Assembly: GCA_017856385.1 (NCBI GenBank)
Contig: JAFMFD010000005.1
Span: forward strand, 1 to 64,000
Length of the DNA stretch: 64,000 nucleotides
Direction of reading: 5' to 3'
Source of the DNA: Actinomycetota bacterium
GTDB taxonomy: Bacteria; Actinomycetota; Actinomycetes; S36-B12
The position numbers and the translations under genes are program-made. Positions 47,793-63,237 of the stretch are shown piece after piece (position 1 is the stretch's first letter; the number at the start of each line of letters is the position of its first letter). The notes under the pieces were generated by a model, which saw only the letters and a list, made by a program, of their open reading frames with translations, had not been told where the DNA came from and did no database searches.

Positions 47793-49136
47793 ATGACCGC
47801 TGTCGTCCACCACGAGATCCCCCAGCAGCGCCTGCTGGTCACCGAGATCCCCGGCCCGCGATCGGTGGCGCTGCAGGCGCGCAAGACCCAGGCCGTGTCC
47901 AACGGGGTGGGTGTCACGCTCCCCATCTACGTGGTGCGCGCCGGGGGCGGCGTGCTCATCGATGCCGACGGCAACTCGTTCATCGACATGGGCTCCGGCA
48001 TCGCCGTCACCACGGTCGGCAATGCCAATCCCGACGTCGTCAGGGCCGTGCAGGAGCAGGTCGCCGACTTCACGCACACGTGCTTCATGGTCACGCCGTA
48101 CGCGGGCTACGTGGAGGTGTGCGAGGCGCTCAACCGAGTCACTCCCGGGGACCACGAGAAGCGGTCTGCGCTGCTCAACTCCGGTGCCGAGGCCATCGAG
48201 AACGCGGTGAAGATCGCCCGCTCGTACACCCGCCGGCAGGCGGTCGTCGTGCTCGAGCACGGCTACCACGGTCGCACCAACCTGACCATGGGGATGACCG
48301 CCAAGAGCATGCCCTACAAGCACTCGTTCGGCCCCTTCGCGCCCGAGGTCTACCGCGTGCCGGCCTCCTACCCCTTCCGCGACCGCGGACTCAAGGGCCC
48401 GGAGATGGCGGAGATCGCGACGACGCGCATCGACCGCGAGATCGGTGCCGAGAACGTCGCAGCCATCGTCATGGAGCCGATCCTCGGAGAGGGTGGCTTC
48501 ATCGTCCCCAGCCCGGGCTACTACAAGGCGATGGCTGACTACGCCAAGGCGAACGGCATCGTGTTCGTCGCCGACGAGATCCAGTCCGGCTTCTGCCGCA
48601 CTGGCGACTGGTTCGCGTCAGAGTTCGAGGACGTCGTCCCAGACCTCATCACGACCGCCAAGGGCATCGCGGACGGAATGCCGCTCGCCGCCGTCACCGG
48701 CCGCGCGGAGATCATGGATGCCGTGCATCCAGGTGGCCTGGGCGGCACCTACGGGGGCAACCCGGTGGCCTGCGCCGCGGCTCTCGCGGCCATCGACTGG
48801 ATGGAGCGCAATGACGCTCCTGCGCTCGCCCGTCAGATCGAGTCCGTCATGATCCCGCGACTGCGGGAGCTGGCGCTGCAGTTCCCGGCGATCGGGGACA
48901 TCCGCGGACGCGGCGCGATGATCGCCATCGAGCTCGTCAAGCCCGGCACGATGGATCCCAACACCGAGCTGGCGGCGGCCCTGAACAAGTACTGCCACCA
49001 GCACGGGGTCGTCACCCTGACCACGGGCACGTACGGGAATGTCTTCCGCTTCCTCCCCCCGCTGACCATGCCGCTGCCCCTTCTGGAGGAGGCGCTCGGC
49101 ATCCTGCAGCAGGGCTTCGAGGAGGCCACGCGCTAG
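47793..49136 (+). CDS. gabT: 4-aminobutyrate--2-oxoglutarate aminotransferase
   Basis: 447 residues, PLP fold type I, class III. NSGAEAIENAVKIARSYTRR, VFVADEIQSGFCRTG and the lysine in TTAKGIADGMPLAAV match GABA aminotransferases. It converts GABA to succinate semialdehyde. A clear GAGGAG ribosome-binding site precedes the ATG. It is divergent from the PucR regulator, which probably controls it. Its substrate GABA would come from the ALDH-containing operon nearby; no dedicated succinate-semialdehyde dehydrogenase is certain in the window. Confidence 0.9.
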   Translation: MTAVVHHEIPQQRLLVTEIPGPRSVALQARKTQAVSNGVGVTLPIYVVRAGGGVLIDADGNSFIDMGSGIAVTTVGNANPDVVRAVQEQVADFTHTCFMVTPYAGYVEVCEALNRVTPGDHEKRSALLNSGAEAIENAVKIARSYTRRQAVVVLEHGYHGRTNLTMGMTAKSMPYKHSFGPFAPEVYRVPASYPFRDRGLKGPEMAEIATTRIDREIGAENVAAIVMEPILGEGGFIVPSPGYYKAMADYAKANGIVFVADEIQSGFCRTGDWFASEFEDVVPDLITTAKGIADGMPLAAVTGRAEIMDAVHPGGLGGTYGGNPVACAAALAAIDWMERNDAPALARQIESVMIPRLRELALQFPAIGDIRGRGAMIAIELVKPGTMDPNTELAAALNKYCHQHGVVTLTTGTYGNVFRFLPPLTMPLPLLEEALGILQQGFEEATR

Positions 49137-49197: not shown

Positions 49198-49641
49198 GTG
49201 CGCCTTCTGCTCCGCGTGATGTCCGTCGCGCTCACCTCGACCGTCGTCACCACCACTGTGGCCACGGCCGTCGCAGCCGTGCCCGATCCGGCGGAGCCGA
49301 CGGAGCGGGCTTGGTACTGGGAGTGGTCGGACGGCTCCCGAGACCGGGAGCGATCACTGGCCGAGGCGCGATACACGCGGTGGTCCGACCTGCCCGGCCT
49401 CCGGGTCGCCAGCGATCCCCCGGCAGTCGGCCGCACCGTGCTGCTGCAGGTCATGCGCGACGGGCGGTGGCTCACCGAGGACTCCGCACGCACTGCGGCG
49501 GACGGGCGAGCCCTGCTCTCCCTCAATCCCTACTGCGAGGACGGGGCGTGGTGCACCGGGCTGGACGCCTACCGGCTCGTCGCCGGTGATGCCACCGCGC
49601 GCCTCGCCGTGCGCTTCACGCCTACAGCGGGGTCTGCCTGA
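49198..49641 (+). CDS. Secreted protein of unknown function
   Basis: 147 residues. A signal peptide of about 27 residues (RLLLRVMSVALTSTVVTTTV, cleavage near AVAAVPD) precedes a compact domain with VLLQVMRDGRWLTEDSARTA, reminiscent of a short beta-sandwich of the kind seen in secreted actinobacterial proteins, and two cysteines (CEDGAWC). No family was recognised. It has its own good promoter and converges with the saccharopine-dehydrogenase-like gene, overlapping it by 20 bases. Confidence 0.75.
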   Translation: MRLLLRVMSVALTSTVVTTTVATAVAAVPDPAEPTERAWYWEWSDGSRDRERSLAEARYTRWSDLPGLRVASDPPAVGRTVLLQVMRDGRWLTEDSARTAADGRALLSLNPYCEDGAWCTGLDAYRLVAGDATARLAVRFTPTAGSA

Positions 49642-50842
49642 TCCCGTAATCCTGGCCGTAGCCATCGCGCATGAGGTCGAGGAACGGGACGGCATCGAAG
49701 GCCTCGGGGCCCAGGACGCCGGAACCGCTCCAGCGCCCGTCCGCCAGCAGTTCCAGTGCGATGACGGGGTTCAAGGCGGTCTGCCAGACCACCGCCTGGA
49801 CGCCGTACTCGCGCATCGTCCACTCGTTGTCCGCGATGTGGTACAGGTACACCTCGCGCGGACGGCCGTCCGTGCCCGTGCCGGTGACCCAGGTGCCCGC
49901 GCACGTCCTGCCTCGCATGCGGTCGCCGAGCGACGCCGGGTCCGGCAGAACTGCGGCGACGACGTCGCGCGGACTGACCATCATCCCTCCGACCGACACG
50001 GGGTCGGTGCGGTCGAGGCCGAGCCGGTGGACCGTCTTCAGCACGTCGATGAAGTCCTCGCCGAGCCCGTACTTGAAGGTCACCCGACGGCAGTCGATCC
50101 ACCGCGGGACGAGCAGGACCTCCTCGTGCTCGACATTGATGACCTCGACGGGGCCGATCCCCTCCGGGAAGTCGAAGACCTCGGGCTCGGAGAACGGCTG
50201 CGTCGTGAACCAGCCACGCTCTCGCTCCCAGATGATCGGCGGGTTCAGGCACTCCTCGATCGTGGTCCAGATGGAGAACGACGGCGCGAAGTCGAACCCG
50301 TCGACCGCCAGGTTCGCGCCGTCGCGGATCCCGATCTCGTCGATCTCGCTGAACAGGTGGTCGGCCGCGTAGCGTGCGAACACGTCGGCGAGACCGGGCT
50401 CGACGCCCATGCCGCACAGGGCAAGCCTCCCGCGCCCGGCCCACGCCTCCGACTGCGCGAACTGCTCGTCCCCCAGCTTCACGCCGACCTGCGAGAAGGG
50501 GTGCGTCGGGTGCGGGCGCGACAGGCTCATGGCGGTGTCGAGGTAATCGGCGTCGGCCGCGAGCGCACCGTCGAAGATCGGCATGACGAATCGCGGGTCG
50601 ACCATGTTGAGCACATGCGTGATGCCGTGCTCCCGGCTCAGGGCGGCGACATCGTCGGCTCGCGAGGCGTCAAGGCCGATGCCGAGGAACCGGCTGTCGT
50701 CCACGCGATCCACCACGCGGGCGCAACGCGCAGGGTCGTAGTCGGCGACGATCCAGAGATCGAAGAAGTCTCGACGCGCCGCGATGAGCGCAGCCGACGT
50801 GCCCACTCCGCCCGCGCCGATTGCGAGGACGCGGATTCCCAT
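49622..50842 (-). CDS. Saccharopine dehydrogenase-like (NAD(P)-dependent) protein
   Basis: 406 residues. The N-terminal Rossmann motif GAGGVGTSAALIA and the following VADYDPARC acidic strand end fit the saccharopine dehydrogenase/carboxynorspermidine synthase fold; EPGLADVFARYAADHLF is the second-domain hallmark. It is the last gene of the polyamine operon, 2 bases after the ureohydrolase gene. Family members form or cleave carboxyalkylated amines or make homospermidine, so a polyamine substrate is plausible; the step is not known. The ATG has an AGGGGG ribosome-binding site. Confidence 0.8.
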   Translation of the reverse strand: MGIRVLAIGAGGVGTSAALIAARRDFFDLWIVADYDPARCARVVDRVDDSRFLGIGLDASRADDVAALSREHGITHVLNMVDPRFVMPIFDGALAADADYLDTAMSLSRPHPTHPFSQVGVKLGDEQFAQSEAWAGRGRLALCGMGVEPGLADVFARYAADHLFSEIDEIGIRDGANLAVDGFDFAPSFSIWTTIEECLNPPIIWERERGWFTTQPFSEPEVFDFPEGIGPVEVINVEHEEVLLVPRWIDCRRVTFKYGLGEDFIDVLKTVHRLGLDRTDPVSVGGMMVSPRDVVAAVLPDPASLGDRMRGRTCAGTWVTGTGTDGRPREVYLYHIADNEWTMREYGVQAVVWQTALNPVIALELLADGRWSGSGVLGPEAFDAVPFLDLMRDGYGQDYGIRQTPL

Positions 50843-50844
50843 GA

Positions 50845-51861
50845 CTACCCCCTGCCGTCCAGCAGCGGCTGACGTGGATCCCAGGTCGTGCCGTCACGAT
50901 CGTCCTGACGACGTCGCGCGAGGGCGCTCAGCGCCTCGAGCACCACGCGGTTGCCGAGCATGGCGGTGATGTCGGCGTGGTCGAAGGGCGGCGAGACCTC
51001 CACGACATCGATGCCCCACACCGGCAGCTCGTAGCAGATGCGCCGGACCGCGTCGAGCAGCTGACGTGAGGTGAGGCCGCCTGGCTCCGGCGTGCCCGTC
51101 CCCGGTGCATGCCCCGGGTCGCACACGTCGATGTCGACGCTGAGGAAGATCCCGTCGCACTCGGAACGGGCGATGGCGAAGGCCTCGTCCATGACCTCGT
51201 CGAGACCGCGAGCGGTGATCTCCGTCATCTCGTAGGACCGCATCCCCTGCTCGGCCATCCAGGCCAGAGTCTCCGGCCCGGGCCAGTAGCCGCGCAGCCC
51301 CAGTTGCAGGAACCGGTCGCCACGCGCTGCACCCGACTCAATGAGCCGGCGCATGGGCTGCCCGTGGCCGATGAGCGACCCGAAGTCGATGTCGCCGGTA
51401 TCCGCATGCGCGTCGAAGTGCAGCACCGCGACACGTCCCCAGCCACGTGCTCGCGCCACGCCGGTGACGTCCGGCCAGGTGATGGTGTGGTCGCCGCCGA
51501 GCACGAGCGGTATCGCACCCGTCGACGCCACGCGCTCGATCACCCGCTCCAGGTCGGCGCACGACCGGGCTGCGTCACCGCTGAAGAGCTCGACATCGCC
51601 TCCATCGAGCACGCGCAGGTCCTTCAGGCCATCCACGCGCATCGCGAGGGATGGCCGTGAGCCGTCGTGCGCGAGGTAGCAGGCCGCACGAAGGGCCGCA
51701 GGACCGAACCGTGCACCGCTGCGGTACGAGGTCCCTCCGTCGAAGGGGGCGCCCACGATGACGACATCGGCGTCCGCGTACGTCGCCGAATCATCGAGGT
51801 CGCACCTGTCGACGCCGAGGAACGTGTAGTCCGGACCGTACTGCGCGCCGTAGCGGGTCAT
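50845..51861 (-). CDS. speB: Agmatinase / guanidino-acid ureohydrolase
   Basis: 338 residues. The binuclear manganese site is complete: LGGDHTI, HFDAHADTG and SVDIDVCDPGHAPGTGTPEP. It releases urea from agmatine (giving putrescine) or from 4-guanidinobutyrate (giving GABA); sequence alone does not decide, and either product feeds this cluster. The ATG follows a TATGGT box by 6 bases, so it may have its own leaderless transcript within the operon. Confidence 0.88.
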   Translation of the reverse strand: MTRYGAQYGPDYTFLGVDRCDLDDSATYADADVVIVGAPFDGGTSYRSGARFGPAALRAACYLAHDGSRPSLAMRVDGLKDLRVLDGGDVELFSGDAARSCADLERVIERVASTGAIPLVLGGDHTITWPDVTGVARARGWGRVAVLHFDAHADTGDIDFGSLIGHGQPMRRLIESGAARGDRFLQLGLRGYWPGPETLAWMAEQGMRSYEMTEITARGLDEVMDEAFAIARSECDGIFLSVDIDVCDPGHAPGTGTPEPGGLTSRQLLDAVRRICYELPVWGIDVVEVSPPFDHADITAMLGNRVVLEALSALARRRQDDRDGTTWDPRQPLLDGRG

Positions 51862-51888: not shown

Positions 51889-53307
51889 TCAGCTGTCGAA
51901 TCCGAGGCCTGCGCGATCGAGCAGGCGGAGCCACAGATTGCGACGCCCTCCTTGAGCGTCCGCCCGTGCGAGCGATCGGGTGGTGATCGCGATTCCCGCC
52001 GAGCGGATCGGCTCGGGCGGGAATGGCAGCGGCCGCGAACGGACCATGTCGAGGCGGGTGCGCTCGGTGTCCCGGCCGTCCAGGAGGTCCAGCATCGTCA
52101 GCGCGCCGAAACGCGATGCGCCCACGCCAAGGCCGGTGAAGCCGACCACGTAGCCGACCTTGCCCTGCATCGCCGTTCCCCAGAAGGCGGTGAACCGCGA
52201 GCAGGTGTCTATGGCACCGCCCCAGCCGTGGGTGAAACGGATGCCTGCAAGGTCCGGGAAGGTCTGGAGGAAGTGCTCCGCAAGGTGTCCGAAGCAGGAC
52301 TCCTCGCTCTCGAACCGGCGGCTGACCCGGCTGCCGAAGTGATGGACCGCGTCGTAGCCGCCCCACAGGATTCGACCATCAGGCGTCACGCGGTAGTAGT
52401 GGAAGCGGTTCCCCGAGTCGGACATCCCCTCACGGCCCTCCCAGCCAATGGCGCGCCACTGTGCCGCGGTCAACGGCTCAGTGACCAGCACGTAGTCGTA
52501 GACGGGCACGATGTAGTGCTTGATTCGGGCAAGCAGTGGCGGAAATGCGCTGGTGGCGAGCGCAACCCTCGTTGCGCGCACGACGCCTCGACGGGTCACG
52601 ACCTCCACGACGGAACCGCTGTCGCGGATGTCCTCGACCGGCGTGCCCTCGTGGATGCGGACGCCGATCGATTCGCACGCTGCAGCGAGGCCCCAGGCCA
52701 GACGAGCCGGGTCCACCAGTGCCACTCCGGAGCGTTCCCACGCCGCAGCGAGGTAGGTCGGCGAGTGGATGCGCGCTCGCACGGCCTCCTCATCGAGGAA
52801 CTCCCACTCCTCGCCGAGCGAGCATGCCAGTTCGACAGCGTCCTGCAGTTCGCGAACCTGATGCGCCGCCACGGCGACGTCGATCTCCCCCGTGCGCACG
52901 AACGAGCAGTCGATGCCGAGGTCATGGATGGTCTTGTCGATCGCGTCCAGGTTTTCGCGCCCCATGCGCAGCAGTTCGGGCATCTCGTCACGGAACCGGC
53001 TCGCACCGTTGACGACGCCGTGGGTCAGGGAAGCTGACATGAAGCCCCCATTGCGACCGGTGGCCCCCTCGGCGATCCGGGCACCCTCCAGCAGCACCAC
53101 CTCGCGAGCAGGGTCCTGCTGCTTGGCGAGCAGCGCCGACCAGAGGCCGGTGAACCCGCCTCCTACGACGACGAGGTCGGCGCTGCCATCGCCGGCGAGC
53201 GGCGGACGAGGCCGGGGACGATCCGGCGTGTCCAGCCAGAAGGGACTCACGCGCAGCCCGGCGAGAGCCTCCAGGGCGGTGGGTGATGGGTGGGACGCAA
53301 ACTGCAC
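51889..53307 (-). CDS. FAD-dependent amine oxidoreductase (DAO/PuuB-like)
   Basis: 472 residues. The FAD-binding motif VVVGGGFTGLWSALLA is near residue 40, and GATGRNGGFMSASLTHG is the flavin-contact loop of the DAO family; GWGGAIDTCSRFTAFWGTA and the late VGFTGLGVGASRFGALTM complete it. Homologues such as PuuB oxidise gamma-glutamylputrescine, others simple amines. The GTG at 53307 is chosen because AAGGAG lies 7 bases upstream; a TTG six codons earlier is weaker. It follows potC. Confidence 0.88.
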   Translation of the reverse strand: MQFASHPSPTALEALAGLRVSPFWLDTPDRPRPRPPLAGDGSADLVVVGGGFTGLWSALLAKQQDPAREVVLLEGARIAEGATGRNGGFMSASLTHGVVNGASRFRDEMPELLRMGRENLDAIDKTIHDLGIDCSFVRTGEIDVAVAAHQVRELQDAVELACSLGEEWEFLDEEAVRARIHSPTYLAAAWERSGVALVDPARLAWGLAAACESIGVRIHEGTPVEDIRDSGSVVEVVTRRGVVRATRVALATSAFPPLLARIKHYIVPVYDYVLVTEPLTAAQWRAIGWEGREGMSDSGNRFHYYRVTPDGRILWGGYDAVHHFGSRVSRRFESEESCFGHLAEHFLQTFPDLAGIRFTHGWGGAIDTCSRFTAFWGTAMQGKVGYVVGFTGLGVGASRFGALTMLDLLDGRDTERTRLDMVRSRPLPFPPEPIRSAGIAITTRSLARADAQGGRRNLWLRLLDRAGLGFDS

Positions 53308-53390
53308 AGGTGGGCTCCTTGCCAAGTCGGCTCCAGAACGAGACGCAGCCGAACGCTCCGCCTTCCCACCAGTCCCTTCAGCGAATCATG

Positions 53391-53429: not shown

Positions 53430-54257
53430 TCATGACCTCGGCAAGGCGTCTGCCGGCACCACGCTGGTCGCCAGGCTCCGGCGCCGACGCTGGTTGACGA
53501 ACTGCGCCGTCAGGACGATCAGCAGTGCCACAACGAAGACGATGGTCGCCAGCGCGTTCACCTGGACCGGAATACCCCGCTGCGCCGCCCCCCAGATGTA
53601 GATCGGGAAGGTGACGAGGGTGCCTGCATTGAAGAAGCTGATGATGAAGTCGTCGAACGAGAGCGCGAAACCCAGAAGCGCTGCCCCGACGATGCCGGGC
53701 AGCACGAGGGGGAAGGTGACATAGCGGAAGACCGCACGCGGATTCGCGTAGAGGTCACGGGCCGCCTCCTCCAGGCGCGGGTCCATGCCCTGGAGTCGAG
53801 CCTTCACGGTCACCACGACGAACGAGATGATGAACATGATGTGCGCGATGATGACCGTGCCCTCGCCGAGGGGGAACCTGAGGTTGAGGAAGAGGGCCAG
53901 GAGGCTCGCACCCATGACGACCTCGGGCGTGGCCATCGGCAGAAAGATGAGCAGGTTCGTCGTGCTGCGCCCACGGAAGCGGTAGCGCACGAGTGCGAAG
54001 GCGATCATCGAACCGAGGACGGTGGCGACGATGGTCGAGATGACTCCGATCTGGATGCTGGTCACGAAGGACGAGCAGACACCCGGCACCCCGCACAGGT
54101 TCGTCCACGCATCAAGGGAGAACTCGTTCCACGTCAGGTTGTACTTGCCGCTGGGCTTGTTGAACGACAGGACCATGATGACGGCGATGGGGACGAACAG
54201 ATAGACCAGGACCGCGATCCCCACGATGCCGACGAGGTTTCGGCGCAGCCAGCGCAT
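53430..54257 (-). CDS. potC: Polyamine ABC transporter permease PotC
   Basis: 275 residues, six TM segments. The EAA loop EEAARDLYANPRAVFRYVTF-like sequence near residue 175 contacts the ATPase. It is one of two membrane subunits of a spermidine/putrescine importer. The ATG shares one base with the potB stop. Order potD-potA-potB-potC with downstream catabolic genes indicates uptake for degradation. Confidence 0.92.
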   Translation of the reverse strand: MRWLRRNLVGIVGIAVLVYLFVPIAVIMVLSFNKPSGKYNLTWNEFSLDAWTNLCGVPGVCSSFVTSIQIGVISTIVATVLGSMIAFALVRYRFRGRSTTNLLIFLPMATPEVVMGASLLALFLNLRFPLGEGTVIIAHIMFIISFVVVTVKARLQGMDPRLEEAARDLYANPRAVFRYVTFPLVLPGIVGAALLGFALSFDDFIISFFNAGTLVTFPIYIWGAAQRGIPVQVNALATIVFVVALLIVLTAQFVNQRRRRSLATSVVPADALPRS

Positions 54258-55150
54258 CAGACGAGATCCTCCGTGCCAGCCCGTCGGATGTATGTGAACA
54301 CCAGGACGAGGATGATGGCCATCAGGACGAAGGACAGTGCACTGGCGGTCGGGTAGTCACGGAACTGGATGAAGTTGATCTGGATCGCATTGCCGATCAT
54401 GCGGTTCCCGGTTGACCCGAGCAGGGCGGCATTGATGTAGTCGCCGGCCGCGGGGATGAAGGTGAGCAGCGTGCCTGCGACGACGCCCGGCATCGACAGC
54501 GGCCACGTGACCTTGCGGAATGCCGTGGCCGGCGAGGCATAGAGATCACCGGCGGCCTCGATCAGTCGTGGGTCGATCTTCTCCAGCGCCGCGTAGAGGG
54601 GCAGGATCATGAAGGGCAGGAAGTTGTAGGTGAGTCCGGCGACGACGGCGATACCCGTGTTCAGGATGCGACCGTCGGGCAGCAGGTGCAGGGCGTTCAG
54701 CGTGCTCGTGATGATGCCCTCGTCCGCGAGGATCGTCTTCCACGCATACGTCCGCAGCAGGAAGGACGCGAATGAGGGAGCGATGACCAGGACCAGCAGG
54801 AGTGAGCGCCAGCGCCCCCCACGGAAGGCGATGAAGTAGGCGAGGGGGTAGGCGATCACCAGCGCGATGATCGTGGCGATCCCGGCGTACACGAACGACC
54901 GCACGAACAGCGGCCAGTACTCGGCCATGGCGGACGCGTAGTTGCCGAACTCCAGGCCGACCGCGTAGCGGCCGGACTGCCCCTCGATCGGCTTCTGCAG
55001 GCTGGTGAGGAACAGGGTGACGAACGGGATGGCGAAGAACACCGCGAGCCAGGCGATCCCCGGGAAGAGGAGCAGATAGCCCGTGCGCGAGGACTTCTGC
55101 GCCGACGGTGTACTCGAGGCGCGCCCCGCGGCTGGGACGACGGCGACCAC
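54257..55150 (-). CDS. potB: Polyamine ABC transporter permease PotB
   Basis: 297 residues from the GTG chosen, six TM segments after a short cytoplasmic tail, with the EAA loop LIEAAGDLYASPATAFRKVT. A longer frame would overlap potA by 46 bases; the GTG at 55150, two bases after the potA stop, is preferred. It pairs with PotC. Confidence 0.92.
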   Translation of the reverse strand: MVAVVPAAGRASSTPSAQKSSRTGYLLLFPGIAWLAVFFAIPFVTLFLTSLQKPIEGQSGRYAVGLEFGNYASAMAEYWPLFVRSFVYAGIATIIALVIAYPLAYFIAFRGGRWRSLLLVLVIAPSFASFLLRTYAWKTILADEGIITSTLNALHLLPDGRILNTGIAVVAGLTYNFLPFMILPLYAALEKIDPRLIEAAGDLYASPATAFRKVTWPLSMPGVVAGTLLTFIPAAGDYINAALLGSTGNRMIGNAIQINFIQFRDYPTASALSFVLMAIILVLVFTYIRRAGTEDLV

Positions 55151-55152
55151 GC

Positions 55153-56262
55153 TCAGGACCCCGCGCCGTCGAGGCCGAAGGTGTGGCTCGGCGCCCAATG
55201 GAGCACCACGGGGTCACCCACGTCGCAGCGGTCACCCACGATGACGTTCTGCTCGAAGACCATGAACTCCTGTCCCCAGCTCGAGCGAACGAGGTACTGG
55301 GTGGACACGCCGGTGTAGGAGACATCGGTGACGGTCCCGTCCACGCGGTTGTGGCTCTCCGGTACACGGTCGCGGTCGACCGCATCGAGCACCGTGATCT
55401 TCTCCGGCCGAACACCCACGATGACGTCCGAGCCAGCCGCGAAGCACCTCTGGGAGGGCACCGCGAACGTGAGGCCGTGGGCCTCGACCAGCGTATCGTC
55501 GCCCGCTGCCCCGGAGCGCCGCCCGACGATCAGGTTCGACTGGCCGAGGAAGTTGGCGACGAACACCGTGCGCGGCGTCTCGTAGATGTCGGCGGGGTGA
55601 CCGAGCTGCTCGATGCGCCCGGCGTTCATGACGGCCACGGTGTCGGCCATGGTCATGGCCTCCTCCTGGTCGTGGGTCACGTGGACGAACGTGGTGCCCA
55701 CGTCGACCTGGATGCGCTTGAGCTCGATCTGCATCTGCCGCCGCAGCTTGAGGTCGAGGGCACCCAGCGGCTCGTCGAGCAGGAGGACTTCCGGTCGGTT
55801 GATGAGGGCCCGGGCCACCGCGACGCGCTGCTGCTGGCCGCCGGAGAGCTGGGCCGGCTTGCGCCGCGCCATGGGGCCCAGCTCGACGAGCTCGAGCATC
55901 TGCTCGACGGCGGGCTTGACGTCCTTGATCCCTCGCCGGCGCAGGCCGAAGGCCACGTTCTCGAAGATGTCGAGGTGCGGGAACAGGGCATAGGACTGGA
56001 ACACCGTGTTGACCGGTCTCTCGAAGGCCCGCAGTCGGGTGATGTCTCGGTCGCCGATGCGGATCGAGCCCTCAGTGGGATCCTCGAGCCCTGCCACCAT
56101 GCGCAGGGTCGTGGTCTTCCCGCAGCCCGAGGCCCCGAGGAGCGCGAAGAACGAGCCGGCGGGGATCGTCAGCGTGAGATCGTCGACCGCAACGAAATCC
56201 CCGAAGCTCTTGGTGAGGTTCTGCAGGTGCAGGTCCTCCACCGTGTTGGCCTTCTCCGCCAC
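55153..56262 (-). CDS. potA: Polyamine ABC transporter ATP-binding protein PotA
   Basis: 369 residues. Walker A GASGCGKTT, signature LSGGQQQRVAVARAL, Walker B VLLLDEPLGALD and a C-terminal TOBE domain (about 290-369) are present. It powers the PotBC importer. It lies 49 bases downstream of potD. Confidence 0.94.
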   Translation of the reverse strand: MAEKANTVEDLHLQNLTKSFGDFVAVDDLTLTIPAGSFFALLGASGCGKTTTLRMVAGLEDPTEGSIRIGDRDITRLRAFERPVNTVFQSYALFPHLDIFENVAFGLRRRGIKDVKPAVEQMLELVELGPMARRKPAQLSGGQQQRVAVARALINRPEVLLLDEPLGALDLKLRRQMQIELKRIQVDVGTTFVHVTHDQEEAMTMADTVAVMNAGRIEQLGHPADIYETPRTVFVANFLGQSNLIVGRRSGAAGDDTLVEAHGLTFAVPSQRCFAAGSDVIVGVRPEKITVLDAVDRDRVPESHNRVDGTVTDVSYTGVSTQYLVRSSWGQEFMVFEQNVIVGDRCDVGDPVVLHWAPSHTFGLDGAGS

Positions 56263-56311: not shown

Positions 56312-57517
56312 CTAGTTGCCGATGGCCTTCTGGAACTCGCGCTCGTACTGCTCGTTCTGCTCGGACGTCAGCGTCATGAAGACATAGGCGTTGGACAGGG
56401 TCTCCTCGTTCGGGAAGATCCACTGGTTGTCGACCAGCGATGGGTCGAGCGCCTCCATGGCCTCCTGCGCGCCCTTCACCGGGCAGATGTACTGGACGTA
56501 TGCCGCCACCTCGGCCGCGACGGCCGGATCGTAGTAGTAGTTCATCGCGAGCTCGGCGTTCTTCTTGTGCTGGGCGAGCGACGGCACGAGCATGTTGTCG
56601 GTCCACAGGGTCGCGCCGGACTCCGGCAGCGCCACGCCGAAGTCCTCTCCCAGCTGGATCATGTCGCCGGACCAGCCGATGACGGCGAGCACATCGCCGG
56701 ACTCGAGGGCCGCGATGTAGTCATTGCCGGTCACCTGACGGATCTGACCGCTGTCGACCTGCTGCGTCAGGTACTCGATGGCCGCGCTGAACTCGTCGTC
56801 CGTGAAGTTGCTGGGGTCGGCGCCCTGGTACGCGAGGATCAGGCCCATCGTGTCGCGCATCTCAGAGAGCACGGTGATCCGACCCTTCAGCGCCGGGTCG
56901 AAGAGCTGGTCGAGCGAGCTCAGCGTGTCGGTTCCCAGCGCGGCCTGGACACCGGCCTTGTTCCAGCCGAGTGCGCCGAAGCCGGACTGCCACGGCAGGC
57001 TGTAGTCGCGGTTCGGGTCGAAGGACACGTTCTGCCAGGCCGGGAGCAGGTTGGCGCGATTCGGGACCAGCTCCCCATTGAGCTTCTGGGCGTAGCCGTT
57101 CTGGATCCACTGCGCGGCCATCCAGTCGGTGAGCACGACGATGTCACGCCCGATGTCCTGACCTTGCTCGAGCTGGGTGCGGACTTTGGCGAAGAACTCG
57201 TTGTTGTCGTTGACGTCCTCGGTGTACGCCACCGTGATACCGGTCTGCTCCTGGAAGGCATCGAGTGACGGCCGCGTACCGGCCTCTTCGTCGATGTCGA
57301 TGTAGAGGGGCCAGTTGGACCAGTTGAGGGTCTTGTCGGTGTCGCTGAGGTCCTCTGCAGCCTGCGGCTCGGCCGAGCTTCCCCCACCGGCGCCACAGGC
57401 GGCCGCAGCCAGCGCTGCGCTGCCGATCCCGGCCGCCTGGAGGAGTCGGCGACGGGAGACGGACGTCGCCATCGTGCCGGCGAGGGTGGCGACGACGTCG
57501 GGGCGCTTGCTGTTCAT
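56312..57517 (-). CDS. potD: Polyamine-binding lipoprotein PotD
   Basis: 401 residues. A Tat-type signal SRRRLLQAAGIGSAALAAAAC ends in a lipobox Cys, so the folded protein is exported and anchored outside. The mature part has WSNWPLYIDIDEEAG and TGITVAYTEDVNDNNEFFAK, typical of PotD/PotF periplasmic-fold binding proteins. GGAGG lies 6 bases before the ATG. Whether it prefers putrescine or spermidine cannot be told. Confidence 0.93.
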   Translation of the reverse strand: MNSKRPDVVATLAGTMATSVSRRRLLQAAGIGSAALAAAACGAGGGSSAEPQAAEDLSDTDKTLNWSNWPLYIDIDEEAGTRPSLDAFQEQTGITVAYTEDVNDNNEFFAKVRTQLEQGQDIGRDIVVLTDWMAAQWIQNGYAQKLNGELVPNRANLLPAWQNVSFDPNRDYSLPWQSGFGALGWNKAGVQAALGTDTLSSLDQLFDPALKGRITVLSEMRDTMGLILAYQGADPSNFTDDEFSAAIEYLTQQVDSGQIRQVTGNDYIAALESGDVLAVIGWSGDMIQLGEDFGVALPESGATLWTDNMLVPSLAQHKKNAELAMNYYYDPAVAAEVAAYVQYICPVKGAQEAMEALDPSLVDNQWIFPNEETLSNAYVFMTLTSEQNEQYEREFQKAIGN

Positions 57518-57579: not shown

Positions 57580-59064
57580 CTACGCCGGTCCGGTGAAGAT
57601 CGTGCGATGCCACGGCTTGCGCGCCTCGCCGGTGATGTCCAGGCTGACGTGCTTGACCTGCGTGTACTCCTCGAAGGAGTAGGTCGACATGTCCTTGCCG
57701 AAGCCGGACTGCCGGTACCCGCCATGGGGCATCTCGCTGACGATCGGGATGTGGTCGTTGATCCACACGCAGCCGGCCCGGATCTCCCGCTGCGCCCGCA
57801 GGGCCCGGAAGACGTCGCGGGTCCAGGCGGACGCGGCAAGTCCGTAGACGGTGTCGTTGGCGAGGGCCAGGCCCTCATCGTCGGAGTCGAAGGGCAGGAC
57901 GACGAGCACGGGGCCGAAGACCTCGTCACGGACGATTTCGGAGTCCTGGGCGGCGTCGACGACGACGGTCGGCAGGTAGTAGGCCCCGCACGCCAGGTCC
58001 CCGCCCGGGGCGGCGCCGCCCACCAGGACGCGAGCCCCTGCCGCGCGCGCCCGATCGACGAATCCGGCCACCCGCTCGGCCTGCCTCGCGGTGACGAGGG
58101 GGCCGATGTCGGTCGACGGATCGGCCGGCGGCCCCACGCGAACGCCCCCGAACAGGTCCGTCACGCCGTTGACGAAAGCGTCGTAGAGGGGGCGCTGGAC
58201 GTAGGCGCGGGTCGCCGCTGTGCAGTCCTGGCCGGTATTGATGAGCGCTCCGGCAACGGCACCGTGCACGGCTGCCTCGAGGTCGGCGTCGTCGAACACG
58301 ACGAACGGGGCCTTGCCACCGAGCTCGAGGTGCACGCGCTTCACGGTCGCCGTGGCCAGGGACATGACGCGCTTGCCCACCGGGGTCGATCCGGTAAAGG
58401 ACACCATCGCCACGTCCGGATGACTCACGAGCGCCTCGCCTGCCTCCGGCCCGGTGCCCACGACCACGTTCACCACACCCGCCGGCACTCCCGCGGCAGC
58501 GCAGTCCTCGGCCAGCATCACCGTGGTCAGCGGCGTGATCTCCGCCGGCTTGAGCACGATGGTGTTGCCCGCGGCTATGGCCGGCAGTGCCTTCCAGACG
58601 GCCATCTGCAGGGGGTAGTTCCACGGCGCGATGGACCCGACGACGCCGATGGGCTCCCGTCGGATGATCGACGTGTGCGCACCGTCCCACTCGGCAGCGG
58701 CCTTGCCCTCGAGATTCCGCGCCGCACCCGCGAAGAACGCGATGTTGTCGATCGAGCCCGGTACGTCGAAGCCGGACGACAGGCGCAAGGGCTTGCCGGT
58801 CTGCCGCGACTCGATGGCGGCGTACTCGTCGGACCGGCCCGCCATGCGGGCGGCGAGGGCGTGGAGGGCCGCCGAGCGCTCCGCCGGCATCGCTCGCGAC
58901 CACTCCGGGAAGGCGTCCGAGGCGGCCGCGACCGCAGCAGCCACGTCGTCACCGCCGGCCATTTCGAACTCGTCGACCACGGAGCCATCCGCCGGGTCGA
59001 CGACCACGCCGCGCTCCGCCGACGTCCCCGTCCGGGGGACTCCTCCCGCGAAGACCGCGTCCAC
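57580..59064 (-). CDS. Aldehyde dehydrogenase (aminoaldehyde type), copy 1
   Basis: 494 residues. The catalytic Cys lies in NTGQDCTAATRAYV, the general base in LELGGKAPFVVFDDAD, and GSIAPWNYPLQMAVWKALPA is the cofactor-site segment. Closest in style to gamma-aminobutyraldehyde dehydrogenase, oxidising 4-aminobutanal to GABA. It is the second gene of the minus-strand operon with GGGAGG before its GTG. Copy 2 lies directly upstream and is clearly paralogous. Confidence 0.88.
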   Translation of the reverse strand: MDAVFAGGVPRTGTSAERGVVVDPADGSVVDEFEMAGGDDVAAAVAAASDAFPEWSRAMPAERSAALHALAARMAGRSDEYAAIESRQTGKPLRLSSGFDVPGSIDNIAFFAGAARNLEGKAAAEWDGAHTSIIRREPIGVVGSIAPWNYPLQMAVWKALPAIAAGNTIVLKPAEITPLTTVMLAEDCAAAGVPAGVVNVVVGTGPEAGEALVSHPDVAMVSFTGSTPVGKRVMSLATATVKRVHLELGGKAPFVVFDDADLEAAVHGAVAGALINTGQDCTAATRAYVQRPLYDAFVNGVTDLFGGVRVGPPADPSTDIGPLVTARQAERVAGFVDRARAAGARVLVGGAAPGGDLACGAYYLPTVVVDAAQDSEIVRDEVFGPVLVVLPFDSDDEGLALANDTVYGLAASAWTRDVFRALRAQREIRAGCVWINDHIPIVSEMPHGGYRQSGFGKDMSTYSFEEYTQVKHVSLDITGEARKPWHRTIFTGPA

Positions 59065-59090: not shown

Positions 59091-60536
59091 TCAGGAGTCG
59101 ATGTTCGCCATAACGTGCTTGATCCGCGTGTAGTCCTCGAACCCGTACATCGACAGGTCCTTGCCGTAGCCACTGTGCTTGAAGCCGCCGTGCGGCATCT
59201 CAGCGACGAGCGGTATATGCGTGTTGATCCACACGCAGCCGAAGTCGAGGTTGCGGGCCATCCGCATGGCCCGACCGAAGTCCTTCGTCCAGACGCTGGA
59301 CGCGAGGCCGTAGTTGACGCCGTTGGCCCAGGCGAGGGCCTGCGCCTCGTCGGAGAACCGCTGGACCGTGATGACCGGGCCGAAGATCTCGTTCTGGATC
59401 ATCTCGTCGTCCTGCTGCAGGCCCGCCACGACCGTGGGCGACACGTAGAAGCCGCGATCGCCCTGGCGACTGCCGCCGGCGACGATCTCCGCGTGCTTGG
59501 GTGTGCGCTCGAGGAACCCGAGCACCCGCTCCATCTGGTGCACGTTGTTGACCGGGGGCACGAGCGCCTCGCCCCCGGGGCCGTCGTCGAACGTGGTCCC
59601 CGTCCCCTTCGCCTGCTCGGCGAGGGCCGCCACGAAGTCGTCGTATATGCGCTCGGAGACGATCATGCGCGTCGCGGCCGTGCAGTCCTGCCCGGCGTTG
59701 AAGTAGCCCGCGACCGCGAGCCACTCGGCTGCCGCCTCCATGTCGGCATCATCGAAGATGACCACCGGTGCCTTTCCGCCGAGCTCGAGGTGGACCCGCT
59801 TGACGTCCCGCGACGCCGACTCGGCGACCTGCATGCCCGCCCGCACCGATCCGGTGATGGAGACCATCTGCGGGATCGGGTTCTCGACGAGCGCGCGGCC
59901 GGTGTCACGGTCGCCGCAGATCACGTTCATGACACCGGGCGGGAGGATCCCTGCATCGGTGATGAGCTCCGCCATGCGCACGGTGGTCACGGGAGTGGTA
60001 TCGCTGGGCTTGACCACCACGGTGTTGCCCGCGGCTATCGCCGGGGCCCACTTCCAGACGGCCATCATCATCGGGTAGTTCCAGGGGGTTACCTGGCCGA
60101 TGACCCCCACCGGCTCGCGGCGGATGATCGACGTGAACCCGCGCATGTACTCACCGGCCGCACGGCCCTCGAGCACGCGCGCCGCCCCGGCGAAGAATCG
60201 GATCTGGTCGATCATCGGCGGGATCTCTTCCGAGGCCGTCACCGCGATCGGCTTGCCGGTGTTCTCGCTCTCGAGGGCCACGAGCTCGTCGGCGTGCGCC
60301 TGCAGCACGTCCGCGATGCCGAGCAGGGCCGCCTGCCGCTCCGAGGGCGTGCTGTCGCGCCATCCCGCGAATGCGCGCTCTGCGGCGGCGAAGGCCGCGT
60401 CGACATCGGCCCCGTCCGAGACGGCAGCCTGCGCGAACACCTCGCCTGTCGAGGGGTTGACCAGATCGCTGGTGCGCCCGCTGGCGGACGGCACCCGCTC
60501 GCCATCGATGAGATTGCTGATGACGCGGCTTGCCAT
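59091..60536 (-). CDS. Aldehyde dehydrogenase (aminoaldehyde type), copy 2
   Basis: 481 residues. NAGQDCTAATRMIV holds the catalytic Cys and LELGGKAPVVIFDDAD the base region; VTPWNYPMMMAVWKWAPAIA is close to 4-aminobutanal and gamma-glutamyl-aminobutanal dehydrogenases. It heads the minus-strand operon and diverges from the Lrp gene. GGGAGG precedes the ATG. A longer frame upstream overlaps the Lrp gene and is rejected. Having two ALDHs may cover two aldehydes, for example from putrescine and spermidine, or one may oxidise succinate semialdehyde. Confidence 0.88.
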   Translation of the reverse strand: MASRVISNLIDGERVPSASGRTSDLVNPSTGEVFAQAAVSDGADVDAAFAAAERAFAGWRDSTPSERQAALLGIADVLQAHADELVALESENTGKPIAVTASEEIPPMIDQIRFFAGAARVLEGRAAGEYMRGFTSIIRREPVGVIGQVTPWNYPMMMAVWKWAPAIAAGNTVVVKPSDTTPVTTVRMAELITDAGILPPGVMNVICGDRDTGRALVENPIPQMVSITGSVRAGMQVAESASRDVKRVHLELGGKAPVVIFDDADMEAAAEWLAVAGYFNAGQDCTAATRMIVSERIYDDFVAALAEQAKGTGTTFDDGPGGEALVPPVNNVHQMERVLGFLERTPKHAEIVAGGSRQGDRGFYVSPTVVAGLQQDDEMIQNEIFGPVITVQRFSDEAQALAWANGVNYGLASSVWTKDFGRAMRMARNLDFGCVWINTHIPLVAEMPHGGFKHSGYGKDLSMYGFEDYTRIKHVMANIDS

Positions 60537-60686: not shown

Positions 60687-61157
60687 ATGGCCCCGCGCGA
60701 GCGTTCCCCGATCGCGCTGGACGATACCTCCAAGGCGATCATCGAGCAGCTCCAGCAGGACGGCCGTCGGCCCTACGCGACGATCGGCCGGGCCGTGGGG
60801 CTGTCCGAGGCCGCCGTGCGCCAGCGCGTCCAGCGCCTCCAGGAGGCCGGCGTCATGCAGATCGTCGCGGTCACCGATCCCGTGCAGGTGGGGTTCGCGC
60901 GCTCGGCCATGATCGGGATTCGCGTGCAGGGCGACGCCGAGGCCGTGGCCGAGCAGATGGAGCGGATGCCCGAGGTCGACTACCTGGTGGTGTGCGCGGG
61001 CAGCTTCGACATCCTCGCGGAGATCGTCGCCGAGGACGACGACCACCTCCTCGACGTCGTCAACCGTCGCATCCGCGGTATCCCCGACGTACAGTCGACC
61101 GAGACGTTCGTCTACCTGAAACTGCGCAAGCAGATCTACACCTGGGGAACGCGGTAG
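60687..61157 (+). CDS. Lrp/AsnC family transcriptional regulator
   Basis: 156 residues. The N-terminal HTH (IIEQLQQDGRRPYATIGRAV; SEAAVRQRVQRLQEAGVM) is followed by the RAM ligand domain from about 75. It probably senses an amino acid or polyamine product and controls the aminotransferase downstream and the ALDH operon across the divergence. The ATG is taken because the domain starts right after it; the frame upstream is antisense shadow. Confidence 0.92.
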   Translation: MAPRERSPIALDDTSKAIIEQLQQDGRRPYATIGRAVGLSEAAVRQRVQRLQEAGVMQIVAVTDPVQVGFARSAMIGIRVQGDAEAVAEQMERMPEVDYLVVCAGSFDILAEIVAEDDDHLLDVVNRRIRGIPDVQSTETFVYLKLRKQIYTWGTR

Positions 61158-61168
61158 GTGATGACCTC

Positions 61169-62569
61169 GTGACGACGACACCGCAGGACGTGACCGAGCC
61201 CGGGGCGGATCCGTGGGCTCGACGCGCGCAGGAGCACCTGTGGATGCCGTTCACCCGCCACTCCGTCTACGAGGGTGGCGGCCACGTGCCCGTCATCGTC
61301 CGTGGCGAGGGCGCCTACGTGTGGGACGACCGCGGGCGTCGCTACCTGGACGGCCTGGCCGGGTTGTTCACCGTGCAGCTCGGACACGGGCGCACCGAGA
61401 TCGGCGAGGCGATGGCCCGACAGGCCACGGAGCTCGGCTATTTCCCCATCTGGTCGTACGCGCATCCGCGGGCCATCGAGCTGGCTGAGCGCCTTGCGCA
61501 CCTGGCACCTGGCGACCTCAACCGGGTGTTCTTCACCAGTGGCGGGGGCGAGGCGGTCGAGTCGGCATGGAAGCTGGCCAAGCAGTACTTCCGCATCACC
61601 GGCCAGCCAACCAGGCACAAGGTCATCTCGCGTGCCGTGGCGTACCACGGCACGCCGCAGGGTGCTCTGTCGATCACCGGTATCCCCGAGGCCAAGGCTC
61701 CGTTCGAGCCGCTGGTCCCCAGCACTGCCCACGTGCCCAACACGAACATCTACCGAGCTCCGGACGGTCTTCGCGATGATGAGAAGGCGTTCGGACGCTG
61801 GGCGGCGGACCGAATCGCGGAGGCCATCAGGTTCGAGGGTCCGAGCACCGTTGCCGCCGTGTTCCTCGAGCCGGTGCAGAACGGCGGAGGATGCTTCCCT
61901 CCCCCGCCCGGCTACCTCGAGCGCGTGCGCGAGATCTGCGACGAGTACGGCGTGCTGCTGGTCGCGGACGAGACGATCACGGCTTTCGGCCGGATCGGCG
62001 ACACTTTCGCGATGTCGCGGTTCGGCGTCACGCCTGACATCATCACGTGCGCCAAGGGCATGACCTCCGGCTACTGCCCGATGGGCGCCATGATCTGCAG
62101 TGATCGGCTCTTCGAGCCCTTCCGCAAGGGCAGTGCCACCTTCCTGCACGGCTTCACGTGGTCCGGTCACCCGGTGGGAGCGGCCGCCGCCCTCGCCACT
62201 CTCGACATCTTCGAGCGCGAGGGGATCCATGCGCACGTGCGCGAGCACGAGGAGCAGTTCCGCCAGACCCTCGAGCGGCTGCGCGACCTGCCGATCGTCG
62301 GCGACGTGCGCGGTGCGGGGTACTTCTACGGGATCGAACTCGTCCAGGACCGCGCAACACGCCAGACGCTGTCCAACGAGCAGGCCGAGCGCGTGCTGCG
62401 CGGATACCTGTCGACCGCCCTGTTCGACCATGGGCTGTACTGCCGGGCCGACGACCGAGGGGATCCGGTGGTCCAGCTGGCCCCGCCGCTGATCATCGGC
62501 CCCCCGGAGTTCGACGAGATCGAGCAGATCCTCCGTACCGTGCTGACCGAGGCCTGGAGCCGACTGTGA
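61169..62569 (+). CDS. Class III aminotransferase, putrescine/diamine type
   Basis: 466 residues, PLP fold type I. HLWMPFTRHSVYEGGG at the start, VLLVADETITAFGRIG and the lysine in ITCAKGMTSGYCPMGA fit the SpuC/putrescine--pyruvate and omega-amino acid transaminase group. It would convert putrescine to 4-aminobutanal. It follows the Lrp gene by 11 bases, and its stop overlaps the next gene (GTGA). Beta-alanine or another omega-amino acid is a possible alternative substrate. Confidence 0.85.
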   Translation: MTTTPQDVTEPGADPWARRAQEHLWMPFTRHSVYEGGGHVPVIVRGEGAYVWDDRGRRYLDGLAGLFTVQLGHGRTEIGEAMARQATELGYFPIWSYAHPRAIELAERLAHLAPGDLNRVFFTSGGGEAVESAWKLAKQYFRITGQPTRHKVISRAVAYHGTPQGALSITGIPEAKAPFEPLVPSTAHVPNTNIYRAPDGLRDDEKAFGRWAADRIAEAIRFEGPSTVAAVFLEPVQNGGGCFPPPPGYLERVREICDEYGVLLVADETITAFGRIGDTFAMSRFGVTPDIITCAKGMTSGYCPMGAMICSDRLFEPFRKGSATFLHGFTWSGHPVGAAAALATLDIFEREGIHAHVREHEEQFRQTLERLRDLPIVGDVRGAGYFYGIELVQDRATRQTLSNEQAERVLRGYLSTALFDHGLYCRADDRGDPVVQLAPPLIIGPPEFDEIEQILRTVLTEAWSRL

Positions 62570-63237
62570 CCGATCGACCGCACTCCCCCGCCGATTCCGA
62601 CCGGACCAGGATCCGGCGCATCCCCGAAAACGCCGTCCACGATCGCGCCACTCTCGACGCGGTGCTCGACGCTGGCCTCGTTGCACACGTGTCGGTGGTG
62701 TCGGGCGAACAGCCCTTCGTCCTGCCCGTCGCCTACGCACGTCGCGATGATGAGGTGCTGTTCCACGGCAGCAGCGGCTCGCGTCTGTTCCGCACCCTCG
62801 CCGAGGGACAGCCCACCTGCCTGACGGTCACCCTCCTCGACGGGCTCGTCCTCGCCCGCAGCGCCTTCCACTCGAGCATGCACTACCGCTCGGCGATGGT
62901 CCTCGGCGTCGCGCGGCGCCTGACCGGGGAGGACGAGCTGGACGGCCTGCGGGTCGTGACCGAGCACCTGCTGCCCGGACGCTGGGACGACTGTCGGCAG
63001 CCGACCGCCAAGGAGCGCGCGGCCACCATCCTCCTGTCCCTCCCCCTGGAGGAGTGGTCGCTCAAGATCGGCACCGGAGATCCGCAGGACGACGAGGAGG
63101 ACATCACCGACGCGCCCTACTCAGGCATCTGGGCAGGCAGCGTCCCCATCCGGGAGAGTTTCGGGACCCCGGCCCGATCAGCCGACTGCCCGCCGGAGAT
63201 CCCGCTGCCCGAGTACGTGCAGCGTTGGCGTCGATGA
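62566..63237 (+). CDS. FMN-binding split-barrel protein (PNPOx/NimA-like)
   Basis: 223 residues. RRIPENAVHDRATLDAVLDA then VVSGEQPFVLPVAYARRDDE and FHGSSGSRLFRTLAEG are the pyridoxamine-oxidase-like / nitroimidazole-reductase (PF12900-type) signature. The chemistry in a polyamine operon is not known; a flavin or PLP-handling role is possible. It overlaps the aminotransferase (GTGA) and the following oxidase (ATGA), so all three are coupled. Confidence 0.8.
   Translation: MTDRPHSPADSDRTRIRRIPENAVHDRATLDAVLDAGLVAHVSVVSGEQPFVLPVAYARRDDEVLFHGSSGSRLFRTLAEGQPTCLTVTLLDGLVLARSAFHSSMHYRSAMVLGVARRLTGEDELDGLRVVTEHLLPGRWDDCRQPTAKERAATILLSLPLEEWSLKIGTGDPQDDEEDITDAPYSGIWAGSVPIRESFGTPARSADCPPEIPLPEYVQRWRR

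What the first reader, a model, noticed from the sequence alone, without database searches (positions are those of the whole stretch)
49622..50842. Saccharopine-dehydrogenase-like enzyme at the end of a polyamine operon
The protein has the Rossmann and second-domain signs of the saccharopine dehydrogenase/carboxynorspermidine synthase fold but sits 2 bases from a ureohydrolase in a catabolic operon. No known putrescine degradation step needs it. It may cleave N-carboxyalkyl amines, form or split homospermidine-like compounds, or trap the aldehyde/imine made by the oxidase. This is the best candidate here for an undescribed enzymatic step.
Basis: partly seen in the sequence, partly recalled or inferred. 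Interest (0 to 1): 0.65.

Follow-up and report, generated by a model that had tools for sequence, protein, structure and literature searches.

The report
Uncharacterised NAD-type polyamine-operon dehydrogenase
A widespread but unstudied actinobacterial enzyme, labelled 'saccharopine dehydrogenase' in databases, sits inside polyamine-uptake and breakdown operons and looks like an NAD+-using relative of polyamine-building enzymes that has been turned to breaking amines down.

Summary
The ORF is real (49622-50842, minus strand, 406 aa, GC3 0.91). It starts 2 bases after an agmatinase-type ureohydrolase and is the last of nine same-strand genes (two aldehyde dehydrogenases, PotD-A-B-C, FAD amine oxidase, ureohydrolase). 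The fold assignment is right. Sequence and an AF2 model (pLDDT 95) place it nearest carboxyspermidine dehydrogenase (CASDH; 28-31% identity, TM 0.9), further from lysine dehydrogenase, saccharopine reductase and homospermidine synthase (HSS). It is not a CASDH: the catalytic Glu/His-Glu-Glu set is kept, but the NADPH pocket (S-R-T-K) is an NAD-type one (D34). The substrate loop is changed to W192...E197-C-L-N-P, resembling HSS. No carboxynorspermidine decarboxylase is found in the own genome or in any of about 65 carriers among 396 Actinomycetota genomes, whereas four ~30%-identical CASDHs examined sit beside one. It is a discrete actinobacterial subfamily, found beside FAD amine oxidase and ureohydrolase, aminobutyraldehyde dehydrogenase, or an APC permease in several lineages. 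Best reading: an NAD+-dependent amine dehydrogenase feeding aminoaldehydes into the GABA route. The substrate (putrescine, spermidine, agmatine or a carboxy-amine) is not determined. None of the five bacterial polyamine-degradation routes in the literature read here uses such an enzyme. New variant of a known kind.

The parts
49622..50842 (-). SDH-like enzyme (406 aa): subject of the finding; Rossmann domain plus saccharopine-dehydrogenase C-terminal domain
50801..50818 (-). Rossmann glycine loop G9-A-G-G-V-G14
   Evidence: sequence and alignment A2
50741..50743 (-). D34, acidic residue at the end of strand b2 (ADYD), in place of the NADPH-binding S34-R35-T36-K39 of CASDH: NAD-type pocket
   Evidence: D in 97% of the subfamily, S in all CASDH; CASDH residues from PMC10413350
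50252..50269 (-). Substrate loop W192-T-T-I-E-E197 (followed by C-L-N-P-P); E197 = CASDH E188; W192 replaces CASDH E183; E-C-L-N-P resembles HSS E237-G-L-Q-P
   Evidence: HSS roles from PMC4725965
50120..50128 (-). H239-E240-E241 catalytic motif (CASDH H228-E229-E230; same H-x-E pattern as HSS H296-N297-E298)
   Evidence: PMC10413350, PMC4725965
50845..51861 (-). Ureohydrolase, above the agmatinase cut-off (TIGR01230 190 vs 174 bits); metal motifs GGDHT, DAHAD, DIDVCDP present
51889..53325 (-). FAD-dependent amine oxidase of the DAO family (polyamine/aminophosphonate oxidase-like)
53430..54257 (-). ABC permease PotC-like
   Evidence: position and conserved order
54257..55198 (-). ABC permease PotB-like
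   Evidence: position and conserved order
55153..56262 (-). ABC ATPase PotA-like
56312..57517 (-). Polyamine-binding protein PotD/PotF-like
57580..59064 (-). ALDH1, aminobutyraldehyde dehydrogenase subfamily (NF010000 689.5 vs 615 bits)
59091..60536 (-). ALDH2, second aldehyde dehydrogenase; its homologue lies directly upstream of the SDH-like gene in Nocardioidaceae, where it scores as aminobutyraldehyde dehydrogenase
47793..49136 (+). 4-aminobutyrate (GABA) transaminase, convergent; next step of the same route
   Evidence: NF004714 733 vs 639 bits
46138..47679 (-). PucR-type regulator divergent from the GABA transaminase

Best explanation
The protein is an NAD+-dependent amine dehydrogenase of the CASDH / homospermidine-synthase / lysine-6-dehydrogenase clan, used in the catabolic direction. 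Proposed working: a cationic di- or polyamine taken up by PotABCD (or, in other lineages, by an APC permease) enters the cleft between the two domains. E197-H239-E241 acts as a general-base triad, and W192 with the acidic residues holds the ammonium groups. Hydride passes from the carbon next to the nitrogen to NAD+, and water splits the imine into an aminoaldehyde (4-aminobutanal, 3-aminopropanal or 4-guanidinobutanal) plus ammonia or the leaving amine. The aldehyde is oxidised by the operon's aminobutyraldehyde dehydrogenases, the ureohydrolase removes any guanidino group, and GABA transaminase passes the product to central metabolism. Shown computationally: fold, kept catalytic residues, NAD-type pocket, conserved gene partners, absence of the biosynthetic partner. 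Inferred: direction, the amine class of substrate, coupling to the aldehyde dehydrogenase. Unknown: the exact substrate.
For: Fold: AF2 model pLDDT 95.2, nearest solved structures CASDH 8deb/4ina/8h52/4rl6 (TM about 0.9), then lysine dehydrogenase 3abi (0.73), saccharopine reductase (0.70), HSS (0.64-0.69). Catalytic residues of CASDH kept: E188, H228, E229, E230 = E197, H239, E240, E241 (PMC10413350). In HSS the same Glu/His-x-Glu triad is essential and oxidises putrescine to 4-aminobutanal with NAD+ (PMC4725965). NAD-type pocket: D34 in 97% of the subfamily against S34-R35-T36-K39 in NADPH-specific CASDHs. Substrate loop: W192 and E-C-L-N-P against the CASDH N-P-E-I-N-I-R-E-I; HSS reads N-T-W-S-V-E-G-F-V-S-E-G-L-Q-P, and the 34% relative L130 reads W-S-P-S-I-A-I-E-E-C-L-L-P in gap-free register with it. 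Partners: 54 of 80 loci have a polyamine/GABA catabolic or transport gene within 150 bp: FAD oxidase 24, ureohydrolase 23, GABA-AT 11, ALDH2 8, APC 6, in Nanopelagicales, Micromonosporaceae, Nocardioidaceae, Microbacteriaceae and (plasmid records) Streptomycetaceae, with different gene orders. No decarboxylase.
Against: No activity data. Coenzyme preference and direction are inferred from motifs. The operon already holds an FAD oxidase that could make the same aldehyde, so a second dehydrogenase may be redundant or do something else. Mycobacterial copies lack these neighbours, and about 22 of 80 loci show none of the probed genes within 150 bp. Many of the 80 loci are Micromonospora, so the counts are not independent.
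Confidence: 0.45

Rival explanations
1. It cleaves a secondary amine: the reverse of CASDH/HSS chemistry, splitting carboxyspermidine, another N-carboxyalkyl amine, spermidine or homospermidine with NAD+ into an aldehyde and a diamine, so that spermidine-type compounds can enter the putrescine route.
For: The closest enzymes (CASDH, HSS, saccharopine reductase) all make or break secondary amines. The catalytic set is kept. The operon has no other obvious secondary-amine enzyme except the FAD oxidase.
Against: The loop around E197 differs from CASDH (R187->E196, E183->W192), so the CASDH carboxylate-binding mode is probably not kept, though which residues bind it was not tested. The FAD oxidase could itself cut spermidine: its S. 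coelicolor counterpart SCO5671 is proposed to do so (PMC8998196).
Confidence: 0.22
2. It is a homospermidine-synthase-like enzyme: NAD+ stays bound, one amine is oxidised to 4-aminobutanal and condensed with a second amine, making an unusual polyamine.
For: NAD-type pocket, H-x-E plus Glu triad and E-x-L-[NQ]-P loop as in HSS.
Against: Sequence and fold are closer to CASDH than to HSS (TM 0.9 vs 0.64-0.69); about 70 aa shorter; sits with aldehyde-oxidising and GABA genes, not biosynthetic ones.
Confidence: 0.12
3. It acts on lysine or another basic amino acid (lysine 6-dehydrogenase or true saccharopine dehydrogenase).
For: Lysine dehydrogenase 3abi is the next structural match. In Streptomyces fungicidicus the copy lies 2-3 genes from ArgP-like and LysE/ArgO genes and near ornithine decarboxylase. 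APC amino-acid permeases adjoin several copies.
Against: Only 15-16% identity to 3abi. The adjoining aldehyde dehydrogenase in Nocardioidaceae is of the aminobutyraldehyde subfamily (723 vs 615 bits). PotABCD plus agmatinase context elsewhere.
Confidence: 0.1
4. It works reductively with NADH, trapping the aldehyde/imine made by the FAD oxidase as a stable secondary amine.
For: CASDH itself runs reductively (PMC10413350); the FAD oxidase is adjacent.
Against: NAD-type pocket and catabolic neighbours favour oxidation. Copies in APC-permease or ALDH2 contexts often lack a neighbouring oxidase. The operon already has two aldehyde dehydrogenases.
Confidence: 0.08
5. It is a biosynthetic carboxy(nor)spermidine dehydrogenase.
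For: Best NCBIfam and PDB matches; HEE motif kept.
Against: 164 bits against a cut-off of 800. No carboxynorspermidine decarboxylase in the own genome or in any of about 65 carriers; the only strong hit in 396 genomes is G168, which has its own true CASDH beside it. NADPH pocket lost. CASDHs form one fully supported side of the tree.
Confidence: 0.03

Closest known systems
Carboxyspermidine / carboxynorspermidine dehydrogenase (CASDH; PDB 8deb, 8h52, 4ina, 4rl6; NF043000)
   Same: Fold and domain order, about 28-31% identity over the full length, catalytic E188/H228/E229/E230 kept, Rossmann GxGGxG
   Different: NAD-type instead of NADPH pocket; substrate loop changed (N-P-E-I-N-I-R-E to S-I-W-T-T-I-E-E); no carboxynorspermidine decarboxylase partner; lies in catabolic/transport operons
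Bacterial homospermidine synthase (4plp, 4xq9, 6y87)
   Same: Glu...His-x-Glu triad, NAD-type coenzyme site, Trp before the catalytic Glu, E-x-L-[NQ]-P loop
   Different: Shorter (406 vs about 474-480 aa), TM only 0.64-0.69, W-E spacing 5 instead of 8, catabolic neighbours
L-lysine 6-dehydrogenase (3abi)
   Same: Clan and fold; oxidises a terminal amine to a semialdehyde
   Different: 15-16% identity, TM 0.73; lacks the HEE motif according to PMC10413350
Saccharopine reductase / dehydrogenase (1ff9, 2axq, human AASS)
   Same: Pfam domains, overall fold
   Different: 12-13% identity, TM about 0.7; no lysine-pathway neighbours

Membership tests
CASDH (carboxyspermidine dehydrogenase) | Three-domain saccharopine-dehydrogenase-like fold, closest to 8deb/8h52 | tested here: met
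   TM 0.91/0.93 to 8deb
CASDH (carboxyspermidine dehydrogenase) | Catalytic Glu188 and His228-Glu229-Glu230 | tested here: met
   E197, H239, E240, E241
CASDH (carboxyspermidine dehydrogenase) | NADPH pocket Ser34, Arg35, Thr36, Lys39 | tested here: not met
   D34, Y35, D36, R39; S34 in all CASDH rows, D34 in 97% of this subfamily
CASDH (carboxyspermidine dehydrogenase) | Carboxynorspermidine decarboxylase (nspC) in the genome, usually adjacent | tested here: not met
   contrast where true CASDHs adjoin nspC
CASDH (carboxyspermidine dehydrogenase) | Score above the NCBIfam NF043000 cut-off (800 bits) | tested here: not met
   164 bits. Even the true CASDH L131 scores only 403, so this cut-off alone is weak
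CASDH (carboxyspermidine dehydrogenase) | NADPH-dependent condensation of aspartate semialdehyde with a diamine | not testable with these tools
   needs enzyme assay
Bacterial homospermidine synthase | E237-H296-E298 triad with W229 | tested here: inconclusive
   triad pattern present (E197, H239-x-E241); W192 aligns only with a 3-residue gap
Bacterial homospermidine synthase | About 470-480 aa, best structural match to HSS | tested here: not met
   406 aa; TM 0.64-0.69 against 0.9 for CASDH
Bacterial homospermidine synthase | Homospermidine formation with tightly bound NAD | not testable with these tools
   needs enzyme assay
Saccharopine dehydrogenase (lysine pathway) | Pfam Sacchrp_dh_NADP and Sacchrp_dh_C domains | tested here: met
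   (shared by the whole clan)
Saccharopine dehydrogenase (lysine pathway) | Close sequence kinship to fungal/human enzymes and lysine-pathway neighbours | tested here: not met
   no hit by sequence profile at E 0.1, 12-13% identity by fold, polyamine neighbours
L-lysine 6-dehydrogenase | Closest kinship to 3abi and no HEE motif | tested here: not met
   15-16% identity, HEE present (HEE absence in 3abi from PMC10413350)

The most novel reading that the evidence does not exclude
A sixth type of bacterial polyamine degradation: an NAD+-dependent polyamine (putrescine or spermidine) dehydrogenase of the saccharopine-dehydrogenase fold. It would release aminoaldehyde directly without oxygen, H2O2, transamination or glutamylation, and would be spread through about one sixth of Actinomycetota.
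Probability: 0.35. Interest if true: 0.75.

Novelty: new variant of a known kind. Interest (0 to 1): 0.5.

Why it matters
If true, NAD+-linked polyamine oxidation conserves electrons as NADH and avoids peroxide, and would be a first polyamine-degrading role for this fold, which so far builds polyamines or handles lysine. It would correct a misleading 'saccharopine dehydrogenase' name in roughly 65 of 396 sampled actinobacterial genomes, including Mycobacterium, Streptomyces and Micromonospora species. It also gives a clean case of how a biosynthetic scaffold changes coenzyme and direction.

Tried and rejected
CASDH membership: rejected on coenzyme pocket, partner gene and tree. Literature search for the gene pair or a 'putrescine dehydrogenase' of this fold: nothing found in the held library; that library lacks most subscription papers. 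Substrate from neighbours of mycobacterial copies: they adjoin a P450, tgt and an acetyl-CoA hydrolase/transferase-like gene, which gave no pathway. A 3D superposition on HSS or CASDH active sites could not be made because no coordinates are handed out. In the tree, row L132 was a mis-framed translation on a very long branch and L130 is a long branch; the CASDH split does not rest on L132.

Full report
WHAT IS THERE. The ORF at 49622-50842 (minus strand, 406 aa) is present as described. Its codon usage (GC by position 0.69/0.46/0.91) and a purine-rich AGGGGG ahead of the ATG mark a real gene, and it begins 2 bases after the stop of the ureohydrolase 50845-51861. Both halves match Pfam saccharopine-dehydrogenase domains above cut-off. 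It ends a run of nine same-strand genes: ALDH2, ALDH1, PotD, PotA, PotB, PotC, FAD amine oxidase, ureohydrolase, this gene, with gaps of -46 to 104 bases. The ureohydrolase passes the agmatinase cut-off, ALDH1 the aminobutyraldehyde-dehydrogenase cut-off, and the convergent 47793-49136 gene the GABA-transaminase cut-off. No promoter or terminator consensus was found at the downstream end. The genome is a Nanopelagicales-like actinobacterium, judged by its relatives.

HOW WIDESPREAD. Close relatives occur in 36 of 59 related genomes (this count includes weaker matches). In an even sample of 396 Actinomycetota genomes about 65 carry a copy of at least 57% identity (counted from the table). Two more lie at 46-49%, then there is a gap to 31-34%. 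So it is a discrete subfamily, mainly actinobacterial, with a few copies in Chloroflexota MAGs (L086, L089) and one 'Spirochaetaceae' MAG (L054; transfer or misbinning).

NEIGHBOURS. In the 80 best genome loci, 54 have at least one of FAD oxidase, ureohydrolase, GABA transaminase, ALDH2, PotC or APC permease within 150 bp. The partners change by lineage while the theme does not. Nanopelagicales have Pot-FADox-Ureo-SDH. Micromonospora have Pot-FADox-SDH-Ureo (order swapped). Nocardioidaceae and L141 have ALDH2-SDH, where the Nocardioidaceae ALDH2 is a clear aminobutyraldehyde dehydrogenase (723 vs 615 bits). Microbacteriaceae, Streptomyces and L138 have an APC permease next to SDH. The 34% relative in L130 has Lrp-SDH-FAD oxidase. 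Caveat: the 80 loci are unevenly sampled (many Micromonospora), and mycobacterial copies have none of these neighbours.

WHAT KIND OF ENZYME. By sequence the only full-length PDB relatives are the CASDHs 4ina, 4rl6, 8deb and 8h4z. The AF2 model (pLDDT 95.2, pTM 0.93) matches the same structures at TM about 0.9, then lysine dehydrogenase 3abi, saccharopine reductase and homospermidine synthase. Against the CASDH structure paper (PMC10413350), the proposed catalytic residues E188, H228, E229 and E230 are all kept (E197, H239, E240, E241). The residues that make CASDH NADPH-specific (S34, R35, T36, K39) are replaced by D34-Y35-D36...R39. An acid at the end of the second Rossmann strand is the usual mark of NAD(H) enzymes (general knowledge). 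The substrate loop differs at most of its conserved positions other than E188: N181->S190, P182->I191, E183->W192, I184->T193, R187->E196. What it resembles instead is HSS: N-T-W-S-V-E-G-F-V-S-E-G-L-Q-P (sequence read from PDB entries; the search query itself was recalled) against W-T-T-I-E-E-C-L-N-P here and W-S-P-S-I-A-I-E-E-C-L-L-P in L130, the last in gap-free register. In HSS this tryptophan binds the amine by cation-pi contact, E237/H296/E298 form an essential triad, and the first half-reaction is NAD+-dependent oxidation of putrescine to 4-aminobutanal (PMC4725965).

NOT A CASDH. The biosynthetic partner, carboxynorspermidine decarboxylase, is absent from the own genome. In 396 Actinomycetota genomes only G168 has a strong one (E 1e-114; the others are weak matches, probably diaminopimelate-decarboxylase cross-hits), and G168 has a true CASDH beside it with the S-R-T motif. 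The three proteobacterial ~30% relatives that I looked at also adjoin nspC. In the tree the eight CASDHs are one side of a fully supported branch.

MECHANISM. I commit to NAD+-dependent oxidation of an amine: triad E197-H239-E241 as base, W192 and acids holding the cationic substrate, hydride to NAD+, hydrolysis of the imine to an aminoaldehyde that the operon's aminobutyraldehyde dehydrogenases oxidise on the way to GABA. Shown: residues, coenzyme-pocket type, partners. Inferred: direction and substrate class. Unknown: substrate. Five degradation routes are recognised in bacteria (gamma-glutamylation, aminotransferase, spermidine dehydrogenase, direct oxidation, acetylation; PMC8998196), and to my knowledge none uses this fold. 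My literature searches found no paper on this subfamily, within an open-access library only.

VERDICT. Observation confirmed, interpretation partly supported. New variant of a known kind: a coenzyme-switched, catabolic-context branch of the CASDH/HSS clan. Interest 0.5: uncharacterised and widespread, with directly testable predictions, but the substrate is unresolved and the fold and chemistry type are familiar.

Noticed in passing
L131:5287-7699 (genome G168): A true CASDH operon in an actinobacterium: CASDH, carboxynorspermidine decarboxylase, and by eye a speA-like gene with an agmatinase-like gene nearby; the only strong nspC hit in 396 Actinomycetota genomes sampled.
   Followed up: partly
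L130:5825-9121: A 34%-identical relative lies between an Lrp/AsnC regulator and a DAO-family FAD oxidase; its loop W-S-P-S-I-A-I-E-E-C-L-L-P matches HSS without gaps, so it may be a second catabolic subfamily.
   Followed up: partly
window 60687-63998 (+): Divergent from the operon: an Lrp/AsnC regulator, a class-III aminotransferase, a PNPOx-like protein (by eye) and a second FAD amine oxidase that runs off the window; a conserved second polyamine/amine module, also seen in Micromonospora.
   Followed up: partly
window 50845-51861 (-): The ureohydrolase's best solved match is 7esr 'probable agmatinase 2' (to my knowledge the cyanobacterial guanidine hydrolase), ahead of guanidinobutyrase 3nio; its substrate may not be agmatine.
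   Followed up: no
window 49198-49641 (+): A 147-aa ORF with a signal-like N-terminus converges on the SDH-like gene and overlaps its 3' end by 20 bases; no Pfam match.
   Followed up: partly
L028:9638-11398: A second, partial copy of the SDH-like gene (C-terminal about 145 aa) lies in tandem after the full one.
   Followed up: no
L043, L045, L050, L052, L076, L080, L085 (mycobacteria): Mycobacterial orthologues are followed by a conserved gene with an acetyl-CoA hydrolase/transferase C-terminal domain, often with a P450 or tgt upstream; meaning unknown.
   Followed up: partly
L151:2600-5001 (Streptomyces fungicidicus plasmid): The orthologue lies near LysE/ArgO, ArgP-like and ornithine decarboxylase genes with a divergent TetR regulator, a hint of basic amino-acid metabolism.
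   Followed up: no
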